Source of the DNA: Owenia fusiformis
Taxonomy: Eukaryota; Annelida; Polychaeta; Sabellida; Oweniidae
NCBI GenBank assembly: GCA_903813345.2
Contig: CAIIXF020000001.1
Span: forward strand, 10,331,598-10,395,597
DNA: 64,000 bases
Reading direction: 5' to 3'
This document shows, piece by piece, positions 40,001 to 46,000 of this stretch; the first letter of the stretch is position 1; every line of letters begins with the position of its first letter. The notes below the pieces were generated by a model. That model was not told where the DNA came from. It ran no database searches and saw nothing but the letters and a program-made list of their open reading frames with translations. A program made the position numbers and the translations under genes.

Positions 40001-43000
40001 TGTCAAGTAATAGTGTTAGTATACATACATGTCAAGTAATAGTGTGAGTATACATACATGTCAAGTTATAGTGTGAGTATACATACATGTCAAGTAATAG
40101 TGTGAGTATACATACATGTCGAGTTATAGTGTGAGTTTACATACATGTCAAGTAATAGTGTTAGTATACATACATGTCAAGTAATAATGTGAGTTTACAT
40201 ACATGTCAAGTAATAGTGTTAGTACAGGGTGTTCCAAAAGTAACAGGACTGGTGCTGGCATTTTGTTAAATATGCACCAATCGTCTTCAAAATGTTACAT
40301 AATGTACTTTCATGTATCATTACTAAAACTGCAAAGTTTCAACAAAAAATATGTAACTCGGGTAGAGATATGGTTGCTATGGTAACATGACATCACAATA
40401 CCCGGGGCAGCATTCCACGCAGACAGTTACATTAAGACAGAAAGAGACATTTAAGCATTTTGTACATCCCATATCAAAGTTGAAATGCAACAACTGGTGG
40501 GAATTACATTTGTTTTACATCATTTGATATTTCCATGTATCCTATGTACTTAGGCTCCTCTTTTGGTCAGTAGAAAAATAGCACTCTGTATCCATGACTC
40601 AAACACATGAGTGAACCCATTTGAGGACATGTCAGGCACGGTTGATTGAACAACTTGGAGAAGGTCTTTCTCATCTTTAAAGATCTTACAGCACTGATTA
40701 GCATTCCATTCTCCATGTAAGTAAAAATTGAATGTTGCATGATCAGAAGAGTATGGTGCATGGTTTTAGAACTCAAGACCTAGCTCCTCTATACCTGCAT
40801 GGTGTTTAATGGTGACCTGCGGGCAGGCACGTTATCAAGGTGGATGGGTCTTTTGGGTCTTTTCAAAAACTCAACCATGAATTGTTCAGACTGTAATTCA
40901 TAGTGATATTCCAGGAAATTGAATAAATATTATTATTATTATGAAATTATACTTGAATCTGAGTTTTATAGCAACACCTTTACAACAAAGCAACTAATAA
41001 AATATACAAGAAATGTTGTATTATAATAGGTGAATTAGATACTTTCTTCGGTAACACAAAAATGTTAGATATCACATTTTCAGAAAAAAGTTGCCCTGGG
41101 TATTGTGATGTCATGTTACTATAGTAACCACAACTCTACCCGCATTTCATCATTTTTTCTGAAACTATAATATTTTAGTTGCAATACTTCAATGTACAAT
41201 TTGTGAAAATTTGAAGACACTGGGTGCAAAATTGACAAAATGCCAGCACCAGTCCTGTTACTTTTGGAACACCCTGTATACATGTCAAGTAATAGTGTTA
41301 GTATACATACATGTCAAGTAATAGTGTGAGTATACATACATGTCAAGTTATAGTGTGAGTATACATACATGTCAAGTAATAGTGTGAGTATACATACATG
41401 TCGAGTTATAGTGTGAGTTTACATACATGTCAAGTAATAGTGTTAGTATACATGTCAAGTCATTGGATACATATAAATGACAACTAATATAAGTACATGA
41501 CAAGTTATTGCTTAAACATTCAGAGTGATTCAGAAGTAACATCCAAAGGAGTTGCTGTTTCAATACTACTTGACTAATCATGTTTAAACTTGGTACAGAT
41601 GTAATACATTAATGAGTAAAGATATCAAAAATAAACATCTGTACCAAGTTTCACAAAGATTGGTCCAGTAGTATTGCAATAGTAACATCACAATGGCAAT
41701 TACACTTCTCCTGGCATGTAATTTCAGGCGTGCAGTGATAGGCGTTGGTGTGGAGGAGGAAGATAGGAAACATACCTGGATGGAGGATGCTGAGGCTGTA
41801 AGTAGAATAAAGTATACAATTATTGGTCTTTCTATAGGTTCATAATGAAACCCCTGTAGCTGAGACTGAGACTGTAGATCAAGGTTTACATTTAGGAGTG
41901 GATATAATTTGACAGCCAACTGAATAGAGATGTATTAAAAATAAACTGTTTATTGCTCTCTTATCTGACTAAAAGGAGATTTGCTATCAATGCCCAGGCT
42001 CTCACTGTTTCTTGTTTTCTTTATAGTCTGCCTCACATGGAGTGTATGAGTGTGCAAGAGCTATCTATGAGTGTGCAAGAGCTATCTATACCCAGGCACT
42101 CGCTATTACTTGTTTTCTTCATAGTCTGCCTCACACAGAGCGTATGAGTGTCAAGAGCTATCTATGCCCAGGCACTCACTGTTTCTTGTTTTCTTTATAG
42201 TCTGCCTCACATGGAGTGTATGAGTGTGCAAGAGCTATCTATGAGTGTGCAAGAGCTATCTATGAGTGTGCAAGAGCTATCTATACCCAGGCACTCGCTA
42301 TGCTATTACTTGTTTTCTTTATAGTCTGCATCACATGGGGGGTAGGAGTGTGCAAGAGCTATCTATGCCCAGGCACTCACTATTTCTTGTTTTCTTTATA
42401 GTCTGCATCACATTGGGCGTATGAGTGTGCAAGAGCTATCTATGCCCAGGCACTCACTATGAGTGTGCAAGAGCTATCTATGCCCAGGCACTCACTGTTT
42501 CTTGTTTTTCTTTATAGTCTGCATCACATGGAGTGTATGAGTGTGCAAGAGCTATCTATGAGTGTGCAAGAGCTATCTATACCCAGGCACTCGCTATTAC
42601 TTGTTTTCTTTATAGTCTGCATCACATGGGGGGTATGAGTGTGCAAGAGCTATCTATGCCCAGGCACTCACTATTTCTTGTTTTCTTTATAGTCTGCATC
42701 ACATTGGGCGTATGAGTGTGCAAGAGCTATCTATGCCCAGGCACTCACTATTTCTTGTTTTCTTTATAGTCTGCATCACATGGGGCGTATGAGTGTGCAA
42801 GAGCTATCTATGCCCAGGCACTCACTATTTCTTGTTTTCTTTATAGTCTGCATCACATGGAGCGTATGAGTGTGCAAGAGCTATCTATGCCCAGGCACTC
42901 ACTATTTCTTGTTTTCTTTATAGTCTGCATCACATGGAGCGTATGAGTGTGCAAAAGCTATCTATGCCCAGGCACTCACTATTTCTTGTTTTCTTTATAG

Positions 43001-46000
43001 TCTGCCTAACATGGAGCGTATGAGTGTGCAAAAGCTATCTATGCCCAGGCATTCACTATTTCTTGTTTTCTTTATAGTCTGCATCACATGGAGCGTATGA
43101 GTGTGCAAGAGCTATCTATGCCCAGGCACTCACTATTTCTTGTTTTCTTTATAGTCTGCATCACATGGAGCGAATGAGTGTGCAAGAGCTATCTATGCCC
43201 AGGCACTCACTATTTCTTGTTTTTCTTTATAGTCTGCATCACATGGGGCGTATGAGTGTGCAAGAGCTATCTATGCCCAGGCACTCACTATTTCTTGTTT
43301 TCTTTATAGTCTGCGTCACATGGAGCGAATGAGTGTGCAAGAGCTATCTATGCCCAGGCACTCACTATTTCTTGCTTTCTTTATAGTCTGCATCACATGG
43401 AGCGTATGAGTGTGCAAGAGCTATCTATGCCCAGGCACTCACTATTTCTTGTTTTCTTTATAGTCTGCATCACATGGAGCGTATGAGTGTGCAAGAGCTA
43501 TCTATGCCCAGGCACTCACTATTTCTTGTTTTCTTTATAGTCTGCATCACATGGGGCGTATGAGTGTGCAAGAGCTATCTATGCCCAGGCACTCACTATT
43601 TCTTGTTTTCTTTATAGTCTGCATCACATGGAGCGAATGAGTGTGCAAGAGCTATCTATGCCCAGGCACTCACTATTTCTTGCTTTCTTTATAGTCTGCA
43701 TCACATGGAGCGTATGAGTGTGCAAGAGCTATCTATGCCCAGGCACTTACTATTTCTTGTTTTCTTTATAGTCTGCATCACATGGAGCGTATGAGTGTGC
43801 AAGAGCTATCTATGCCCAGGCATTCACTATTTCTTGTTTTCTTTATAGTCTGCATCACATGGAGCGTATGAGTGTGCAAGAGCTATCTATGCCCAGGCAC
43901 TCACTATTACTTGTTTTCTTTATAGTCTGCATCACATGGAGCGTATGAGTGTGCAAGAGCTATCTATGCCCAGGCACTTATTATTTCTTGTTTTCTTTAT
44001 AGTCTGCATCACATGGAGCGTATGAGTGTGCAAGAGCTATCTATGCCCAGGCACTCACTATTACTTGTTTTCTTTATAGTCTGCATCACATGGAGCGTAT
44101 GAGTGTGCAAGAGCTATCTATGCCCAGGCACTTATTATTTCTTGTTTTCTTTATAGTCTGCATCACATGGAGCGTATGAGTGTGCAAGAGCTATCTATGC
44201 CCAGGCACTAACTGTGTTTGCCAGCAAGAAGAGTATTTGGTTGAGGGCTGCATACTTTGAGAAGAACCATGGATCAAGGTAATGTAATAAGTGAACAGGG
44301 ATATTAAAAGGTTTAGCATTAATATTATAGGAAACCAATAACCATTACTATGTTTTTCCCCTATTTTCTTAAATAAAATATGCTAAAATAAAATTTGTGT
44401 AAAACTTTAAAGCTCTCATGTTATGTTCTGCACCCATCTCATCCCAAGATTTGGTCAGGGGAAATAAAGTGGAGGGAAATACAGATGAGAGGCTTGATGA
44501 TACAGGTGTAAGGTTGATGATATACATGTAAGTACATGATACATGTTACTTCCAGGGAATCTCTAGAGGCATTACTACAGAGGGCAGTTGCCCATTGCCC
44601 CAAGGCAGAAATGCTTTGGCTAATGGGAGCCAAGTCAAAGTGGCTAGCGGTAGGTTATTTTTCATTTTACGTATACATGTAGAAAGTAGCATTACTCAGA
44701 TCAATATATATATCTCCAAAAATGCATCATGTTGCACATTTGTCTGATAACTTTCAATGAATAAAGTTGTGTATATCTTTTTGGAATTTCTTTACCCCTG
44801 TCATCTTACAAGGTTTGTAGGTAGAAATACAGTACAGTGTATACTGAATTCAAAAAAGAGTTTTTTAAGAAACCAAACAGTTCCGAAATGGTCTCTTGAA
44901 AAATGAAAATATTTATTTTCCTTCTATGTTTTTTCATGTTTTCCACTACTTTGCTATTTCACAGGGAGATGTGCCAGCTGCAAGAAGTATCCTGGCTTTA
45001 GCCTTCCAGGCCAATCCTAACAGTGAGGAGATTTGGCTGGCTGCTGTTAAGCTTGAGAGTGAAAACAATGAGTTTGAGAGAGCCAGGAGATTGCTACAGA
45101 AAGCCAGGACTAGTGCCCCAACAGCCAGAGTTAGTATTGCTTTTATTATCATTATTATGTGCCCATTACTATGCTTAAAAATGTGGTTATATCAGTACAT
45201 GTAGGAGTTATATCTCGAAAGTATTTTAGATTAACATTATACAGGGTGACCCAAAAAAAATGCAACCCTCCATTTCTTCAATATTTTTCTTAAATGGAGG
45301 TAAATTGCTCTGAGATTTGGCACACAAGGACTTCATTCAATGTGGGATCCTCTGGCAAAGTTTCAATAATCATAGTCTTATATTGATAGAGTTATGGCCG
45401 TTCCAAAATATGCTCCAAATATCGTCCATTTCCAATGTTAGGTTTTCGGATGAATCACATTCCCTTCTTTCTGAACATGTAAACTCAAGAAATAATGTGT
45501 TCTGGGATCACAAATTCCAGATGAAGTGCTTCAAAGGCCCCTTCATTCTGTTTAATGCACAGCTCGGGCTGCCAATTTCCAAACATGAAATCATCAGCCC
45601 CTTTTGGTTTGAGGTTGATAATGGCTACACTGTTACTGTTAACACACAGCGCAATATTGGCGTTCCCAGGAAGTTCTAGGCAGTTCTAGAGTGACATAGA
45701 GGCTTCAATAGACAAGAACAGTGGTTCTAGAAGGATGGAGCTATTCTTCACACTTCTAATGATAGCATAACCTCGCTCACTAGTCATTTTTATGAGAAGA
45801 TTATCTCTCCTAGGACGAAGAACCCATGGTAATCCCACAGTCTTGATCTCAATGCCCTTGACTTCTATATATGCGGTTATTTAAAGGATAATGTGTATGA
45901 AAATAACCCTACCGCAATTGCAGAGCTCCAACAAGTAATGGCTGCAAAAATTTGAGCCAAAACCATGGGGAAAATGCATCTGTGTTATGAACAGTTTTCC

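What the first reader, a model, noticed from the sequence alone, without database searches (positions are those of the whole stretch)
41978..44156. Array of about 26 copies of the PRPF6 exon 15 acceptor and first 50 coding bases
Each 77-bp unit has a pyrimidine tract, TATAG and the first codons of exon 15. Because 77 is not a multiple of three, choosing an acceptor one unit early hits TAA in the real exon (CCC AGG CAC TAA), and one far upstream hits TGA in its third unit. So only the last of 27 near-identical acceptors gives a full protein, although scanning from an upstream branch point would meet the decoys first. How the right one is chosen is a real puzzle.
Basis: partly seen in the sequence, partly recalled or inferred. 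Interest (0 to 1): 0.92.

Follow-up and report, generated by a model that had tools for sequence, protein, structure and literature searches.

The report
Splice-site arrays flanking a PRPF6 exon
A gene for a core splicing protein carries 27 near-identical copies of one splice acceptor and 22 copies of a neighbouring splice donor, of which only the copy touching the real exon gives a whole protein; such arrays were described in amphioxus, and here they turn up in further genes of an animal that may be a marine worm.

Summary
The array is real: 27 acceptors (26 decoys and the true one at 44157), mostly 77 bp apart; only the last gives an open frame. (1) The preceding intron carries a donor array: 22 donors (GTGAGT or GTTAGT) on a 29-bp unit, only the first productive, split by a mariner-like insertion. 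A 70-nt exon lies between the two arrays. (2) The kind is known: minisatellites across exon-intron boundaries, 'mirages', in amphioxus (PMC3087553, PMC3902484; passages). (3) It recurs in this genome: by my reading 11 of 23 tandem arrays in kinesin and dynein loci span a splice junction, and a further kinesin gene has 18 acceptors. The true sites are not stronger than the decoys, and the first decoy would make a 229-nt intron, a normal length in this gene. Best explanation: tolerated junction-spanning minisatellites, with splice sites paired across the exon so that the innermost copy is used. Arrays and frames are shown; splice-site use is inferred, as no RNA was available. The genome (34% GC, 12 large contigs) does not look like amphioxus; an annelid is a guess. 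New member of a known kind.

The parts
41983..44213 (+). Acceptor array: 27 copies of intron end (yTnAy-like motif, pyrimidine tract, TATAG) plus about 53 nt of exon; 26 decoys and the true copy
44157..44278 (+).
41798..44156 (+). Intron holding the acceptor array, 2359 nt; 229 nt from its donor to the first decoy acceptor
   Evidence: and coordinates
41728..41797 (+). Exon 14 (70 nt), between the two arrays
39676..39784 (+). Exon 13 (109 nt), whose end is repeated in the donor array; true donor GT at 39785
39759..40224 (+). Donor array, first block: 16 donors GTGAGT/GTTAGT on a 29-bp unit, the first of them true
40225..41276 (.). Mariner-like insertion that splits the donor array; 40-nt ends identical as inverted repeats, TA on both sides
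   Evidence: element type recalled
41277..41489 (+). Donor array, second block: 6 donors with GT, then two degenerate units without it
37983..49154 (+). 3' half of PRPF6 as modelled: 14 exons, one open frame

Best explanation
Two minisatellites arose by tandem duplication of short stretches straddling exon-intron boundaries of PRPF6 (a 'mirage' at each): a 29-bp piece at the end of exon 13 and a 77-bp piece at the start of the next-but-one exon. They grew and were homogenised by unequal exchange or conversion. Each unit keeps a splice site, but only the copy next to the body of its exon can be paired across that exon with the exon's other splice site and internal enhancers. Under exon definition that innermost copy is used and the array is removed as intron. 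The arrays are tolerated rather than selected. Shown: arrays, frames, equal site scores, homogenisation, recurrence in other genes. Inferred: which sites are really used, and why.
For: Arrays and frames. Innermost sites give an uninterrupted PRPF6 frame over 14 exons. True acceptor and donor are not stronger than decoys, so local strength does not decide. Exon 15's unshared part has GAAGA-type purine motifs, decoy unit 26 has none. Intronic and exonic columns of the unit vary alike, 0.956 and 0.963, and the true exon shares its first 53 nt with decoy 26: turnover of a minisatellite. By my reading 11 of 23 arrays in kinesin and dynein loci span a junction, against 5.3 or 7.2 expected at random, so no depletion, as would be expected if decoys were often used. 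125 of 129 copies in 13 arrays keep AG or GT: no sign of silencing. In amphioxus mirages RT-PCR suggests regular splicing is not disturbed (PMC3087553, passage). Exon-side proximity is a reported rule for exon-defined sites (PMC9225289, abstract and passages).
Against: No RNA. The first decoy makes a 229-nt intron, near the 200-250 nt at which the cited work places the switch, and the other array-free introns of this gene are mostly 221-363 nt, so intron definition, which would choose the decoy, is not excluded by length. By the rough matrix the array acceptors (2.9-5.6) score below 12 of the 13 other acceptors and the array donors (4.5-5.5) below all 12 other donors, though those scored their own training sites. 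Junction calls in the survey were made by eye, not blind.
Confidence: 0.65

Rival explanations
1. Regulatory decoys: PRPF6 is a tri-snRNP protein, and the arrays divert part of its transcripts into nonsense-mediated decay, acting as a sensor of splicing capacity or fidelity (autoregulation by poison sites).
For: Each of 26 decoy acceptors and 21 decoy donors leads to a premature stop; the gene is a splicing factor, a class known (recalled) for poison exons; both arrays keep AG or GT in nearly all copies.
Against: Similar arrays occur in kinesin and dynein genes. One kinesin array (L019, 42 bp) has decoys in frame without a stop. Stops are expected by chance when intron sequence is read.
Confidence: 0.1
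2. Intron-side or other choice: decoys near the short-intron distance are used often, or all 27 acceptors are used in turn, and the gene survives on a minority of correct transcripts.
For: First decoy 229 nt from the donor; decoys are transcribed first and have equal site scores.
Against: PRPF6 is essential elsewhere (recalled); no depletion of such arrays in other genes.
Confidence: 0.12
3. A dedicated process makes tandem arrays preferentially at splice junctions, as a source of new introns and exons.
For: 11 of 23 surveyed arrays span a junction and by eye six more begin or end within about 14 bp of one; P 0.005 against random placement with PRPF6's intron lengths.
Against: P rises to 0.06 if all introns are 300 nt; two of the 11 are degenerate; intron lengths of the surveyed genes were not measured.
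Confidence: 0.15
4. Assembly artefact: the arrays or their copy numbers are produced by misassembly.
For: Tandem arrays are prone to this; no reads were available.
Against: Units carry ordered point variants and sub-repeats, and one array holds an inserted element; many arrays of different unit lengths exist. Exact copy number could still be off.
Confidence: 0.03

Closest known systems
'Mirages' of amphioxus: Adh3, globins BflGb6 and BflGb9, PGBD5, troponin C
   Same: Tandem minisatellite-like repeats across either an intron-exon or an exon-intron boundary, many units keeping AG or GT, with the authentic copy at the exon (PMC3087553 passages; PMC3902484 passages)
   Different: Reported copy numbers there in the passages are 6 and 3 (BflGb6) and 2-7 (PGBD5); here 27 and 22, at two junctions that face the same exon, and the genome does not look like amphioxus
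Internal tandem repeats at exon-intron boundaries of human duplicated genes
   Same: Minisatellites at boundaries that affect splicing (PMC2812944 passages)
   Different: There linked to new introns in primate-specific paralogues, on average 30-bp units repeated 4 times
Earthworm metallothionein gene repeats
   Same: Annelid gene with minisatellites in intron 1 and, in one clone, duplications of exon 4 that are not in the transcript (PMC12783039 passages)
   Different: Not described in the passages seen as junction-spanning splice-site arrays
Closely spaced tandem acceptors (NAGNAG type; recalled)
   Same: Competing acceptors at one exon
   Different: Those lie a few bases apart and give small protein variants; here sites are about 77 bp apart and lead to stops

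Membership tests
Mirage | Head-to-tail repeats of minisatellite size | tested here: met
   77-bp and 29-bp units
Mirage | Repeat unit spans an exon-intron boundary | tested here: met
   Unit holds intron end and exon start, or exon end and donor; frame checked over 14 exons
Mirage | Many units keep the splice signal | tested here: met
   27 of 27 AG; 22 of 24 GT
Mirage | Regular splicing is not disturbed | not testable with these tools
   No RNA data at hand
Mirage | Length instability between alleles or cells | not testable with these tools
   One assembly only; the homogenised part of the array suggests recent turnover
Poison-site autoregulation of splicing factors | Alternative site leads to a premature stop | tested here: met
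   26 of 26 decoy acceptors and 21 of 21 decoy donors
Poison-site autoregulation of splicing factors | Restricted to regulators of splicing | tested here: not met
   Same kind of array in kinesin and dynein genes
Poison-site autoregulation of splicing factors | Decoy use responds to the level of the protein | not testable with these tools
   Needs RNA and perturbation
Exon-defined splice sites | Long flanking introns (over about 250 nt) | tested here: inconclusive
   Introns with arrays are 1943 and 2359 nt, but 229 nt to the first decoy acceptor; others 221-1368 nt

The most novel reading that the evidence does not exclude
In this genome, possibly a marine annelid, minisatellites arise preferentially at splice junctions, and a large share of genes carry decoy arrays of splice sites as good as the true one. 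Its spliceosome chooses strictly by pairing across the exon even where a decoy would make an intron of ordinary short length, so the arrays form a natural genome-wide assay of exon against intron definition and a reservoir for new introns and exons.
Probability: 0.35. Interest if true: 0.8.

Novelty: new member of a known kind. Interest (0 to 1): 0.62.

Why it matters
How a spliceosome picks one of several equal sites is mostly studied with built minigenes holding two or three sites. Here nature supplies 27 equivalent acceptors and 22 equivalent donors facing one 70-nt exon, where 'closest across the intron' and 'closest across the exon' predict different products, one truncated and one whole. 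Arrays of 2 to 18 copies in other genes mean that existing RNA data from the species could answer the question. If the host is an annelid, mirages are not a lancelet oddity.

Tried and rejected
Species: Pfam COX1 (control rang in 8 of 14), GFP and a mollusc haemocyanin domain (both with silent controls) gave no hit in the genome and prove nothing. PF16915 (Eryth_link_C; recalled as the linker of annelid extracellular haemoglobin) gave three hits within 15 kb on C6, E 5e-7 to 5e-4. Owenia fusiformis has 505.8 Mb in 12 chromosome-scale scaffolds (PMC9977687, passages), against 498.26 Mb here with 477.5 Mb in C1-C12. The annelid label is a guess.

Retrocopies that would show the used junction: the array-end query matched only inside the array. 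A unique strong branch point before the last acceptor: none found. Preferred birth of arrays at junctions as the main claim: set aside, because 11 of 23 against 5.3 (P 0.005), 7.2 (P 0.06) or 2.8 (P 2e-5) expected depends on the intron lengths assumed; without the two degenerate arrays (L022, L028) it is 9 of 23, P not recomputed. A 37-bp repeat at 13574 lies inside a palindrome, not at a junction.

Literature: ten searches. In their listings I saw junction-spanning arrays only for amphioxus and, of another sort, human duplicated genes; this is no proof of absence, and the original Adh3 paper is not held.

Full report
What was claimed and what is there. The finding describes about 26 copies of an acceptor plus the first 50 coding bases of a PRPF6 exon at 41978-44156. 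This holds. Tandem Repeats Finder gives a 77-bp unit, 21.5 copies, 96% matches at 42557-44213, with an older irregular part upstream. A script finds 27 AG|TCTGC acceptors, first exon base 42027 to 44157. A search of the assembly with the array end finds 27 places, all in this array. The exon joined to the next matches human PRPF6 chains, E 7.1e-55. In the gene's frame only the last acceptor reads through to the donor. The acceptor one unit early stops at CAC TAA; 16 of 26 decoys stop after 58 residues, the other 10 after 2 to 84.

The neighbouring donor array. Exon 13 is 39676-39784 and ends ...ATAGT|GTGAGT. From there a 29-bp unit repeats that contains the last 23 nt of the exon and the donor. 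Twenty-two donors, 17 GTGAGT and 5 GTTAGT, lie at 39785 to 41442; two more degenerate units lack GT. Each of the 21 decoy donors would put TGA directly after the exon end (TCQVIV*). A 1052-bp insertion at 40225-41276, with identical inverted ends and TA on both sides, splits this array. So exon 14, 70 nt at 41728-41797, has a donor array in the intron before it and an acceptor array in the intron after it, and in each array the productive copy is the one that adjoins the body of its exon.

Gene model. Fourteen PRPF6 exons spliced with the innermost copies give one frame without a stop. The 13 introns are 1190, 221, 1943, 2359, 277, 315, 1368, 358, 348, 244, 256, 293 and 363 nt; the two with arrays are the longest. 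From the exon 14 donor to the first decoy acceptor is 229 nt, an ordinary length in this gene.

Are the decoys weaker? I built small matrices from the gene's other sites (13 acceptors, 12 donors), a rough test. The true acceptor scores 3.8; of 26 decoys 15 score the same, 8 higher (to 5.6) and 3 lower (to 2.9). The true donor scores 5.5; of 21 decoys 14 score the same and 7 slightly lower (4.5 or 5.4). Against my reading, the array sites, true ones included, score below 12 of 13 other acceptors and all 12 other donors, although those were scored with their own matrix. A yTnAy branch-like motif stands 22-23 nt before the AG in 24 of 27 units; the last unit has no better one. Intronic and exonic columns vary alike (0.956 and 0.963), and the first 53 nt of the true exon equal those of decoy 26. 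Local signals therefore do not single out the true site. What decoys lack is the rest of the exon: its donor, and GAAGA-type purine motifs that are present in the unshared part and absent from decoy unit 26. Two old decoy units do have a donor-like site 17 nt after the AG (scores 10.5 and 9.1), so tiny false exons are conceivable.

Not a one-off. A search with the kinesin motor family (144 matches) showed hits about every 159 bp on C2. That locus has 18 acceptors CCATAG|ATTCACT; the repeated unit reads on to KPVAL* and the last copy continues KPVVNRDPQ (KIF4 likeness recalled). I then read the tandem arrays (period at least 20, copies at least 1.9, score at least 100, overlapping rows merged) in 30 kinesin loci and 26 dynein loci forming 14 stretches. 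By eye and not blind, 8 of 16 and 3 of 7 span a splice junction: seven acceptor and four donor arrays, among them at least 17 acceptors of 64 bp (L031), at least 14 donors of 61 bp (L023) and 8 donors of 82 bp (L040). Two (L022, L028) are degenerate, and exons outside the matched domains, L023's above all, were recognised only by reading. Of the 12 not counted, six begin or end at a junction or within about 14 bp of one (L030, L043, two in L044, two dynein). PRPF6 and the C2 gene were left out of the count because they were found through their arrays. In 13 arrays examined, 125 of 129 copies keep AG or GT (L022 was not examined, and a third degenerate copy in the C8 array was not matched by the seed). 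In one array (L019, 42 bp) the decoys stay in frame without a stop, so premature stops are not a common design.

What randomness would give. If short tandem duplications can arise wherever they leave an exon intact, the share that spans a junction depends on unit and intron length. With PRPF6's introns collapsed to the array-free state the expectation is 5.3 of 23 (P of 11 or more 0.005); with all introns 300 nt, 7.2 (P 0.06); with introns twice as long, 2.8 (P 2e-5). Intron lengths of the surveyed genes themselves were not measured. There is no depletion, as one would expect if decoys were often used and harmful, and perhaps an excess.

Known kind. In amphioxus, minisatellite-like repeats over exon-intron boundaries are called mirages: Adh3, globins with 6 and 3 units in two haplotypes, PGBD5, troponin C; the authors say that they do not seem to disturb splicing (PMC3087553 and PMC3902484, passages; the original Adh3 paper is not held). 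The structural features are met here. In human duplicated genes boundary repeats can give new introns (PMC2812944, passages), and an earthworm metallothionein clone has exon 4 duplications that are not in the transcript (PMC12783039, passages). This genome is 33.8% GC in 84 kb of samples, and 12 contigs of 32-62 Mb hold 477.5 of 498.3 Mb. From memory, amphioxus is richer in GC and has more chromosomes. Three PF16915 hits and the size and chromosome number of Owenia fusiformis suggest an annelid; this is not proven. About 10% of the random samples is minisatellite (mean of 14 fractions), so raw material is plentiful.

Mechanism. Carranza and colleagues (PMC9225289, abstract and passages) report that competing sites in short introns pair closest across the intron, and in long introns closest across the exon, with the switch near 200-250 nt, and mention short introns that are still exon-defined. 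The PRPF6 intron sets these rules against each other: the first predicts a 229-nt intron and a truncated protein, the second the true exon. The intact frame, the equal sites and the lack of depletion in other genes favour the second. This is inference until RNA is read. Autoregulation of a splicing factor is less likely, because such arrays also occur in motor-protein genes.

Verdict. A real and striking double case of a known phenomenon, apparently outside the group where it was described, and a clean natural test of splice-site choice.

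Noticed in passing
L045 (G000:C2:23265300-23270300, minus strand): Kinesin gene (KIF4-like, recalled) with 18 acceptors on a 159-bp unit; decoy units end KPVAL*.
   Followed up: partly
L019:455-595: Acceptor array of a 42-bp unit in a kinesin gene whose decoys are in frame without a stop; use of a decoy would insert 14 residues per unit.
   Followed up: partly
L016:1981-2723: A 16-bp unit repeated 46 times, many copies with the donor-like GGGTAAGAG, starting about 120 nt after a kinesin motor match.
   Followed up: no
42325-42341 and 42616-42632: Two old decoy units have an AG and, 17 nt later, a donor-like GGG|GTAGGA or GGG|GTATGA: possible false microexons.
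   Followed up: partly
42045-42580: Older end of the acceptor array holds extra 21-bp sub-repeats (TATGAGTGTGCAAGAGCTATC) and 98-, 116- and 124-bp spacings.
   Followed up: partly
G000:C11:11937878-11938157 and C1:56184459-56184604: Weak matches (69-75%) to the donor-array query, those on C11 spaced 78 bp apart.
   Followed up: no
13540-13720: Palindrome with a 37-bp direct repeat at its centre, perhaps a small inverted-repeat element.
   Followed up: partly
22112-25458 (minus strand): Open frames that look like an SLC6-type transporter (recalled), lying between PRPF6-like N-terminal pieces at about 10.4 and 12.9 kb and its 3' exons, so perhaps nested in a PRPF6 intron.
   Followed up: no
30084-31800 (minus strand): Open frames resembling a retroelement with a tyrosine-recombinase-like part (recalled), near a run of 38 T.
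   Followed up: no
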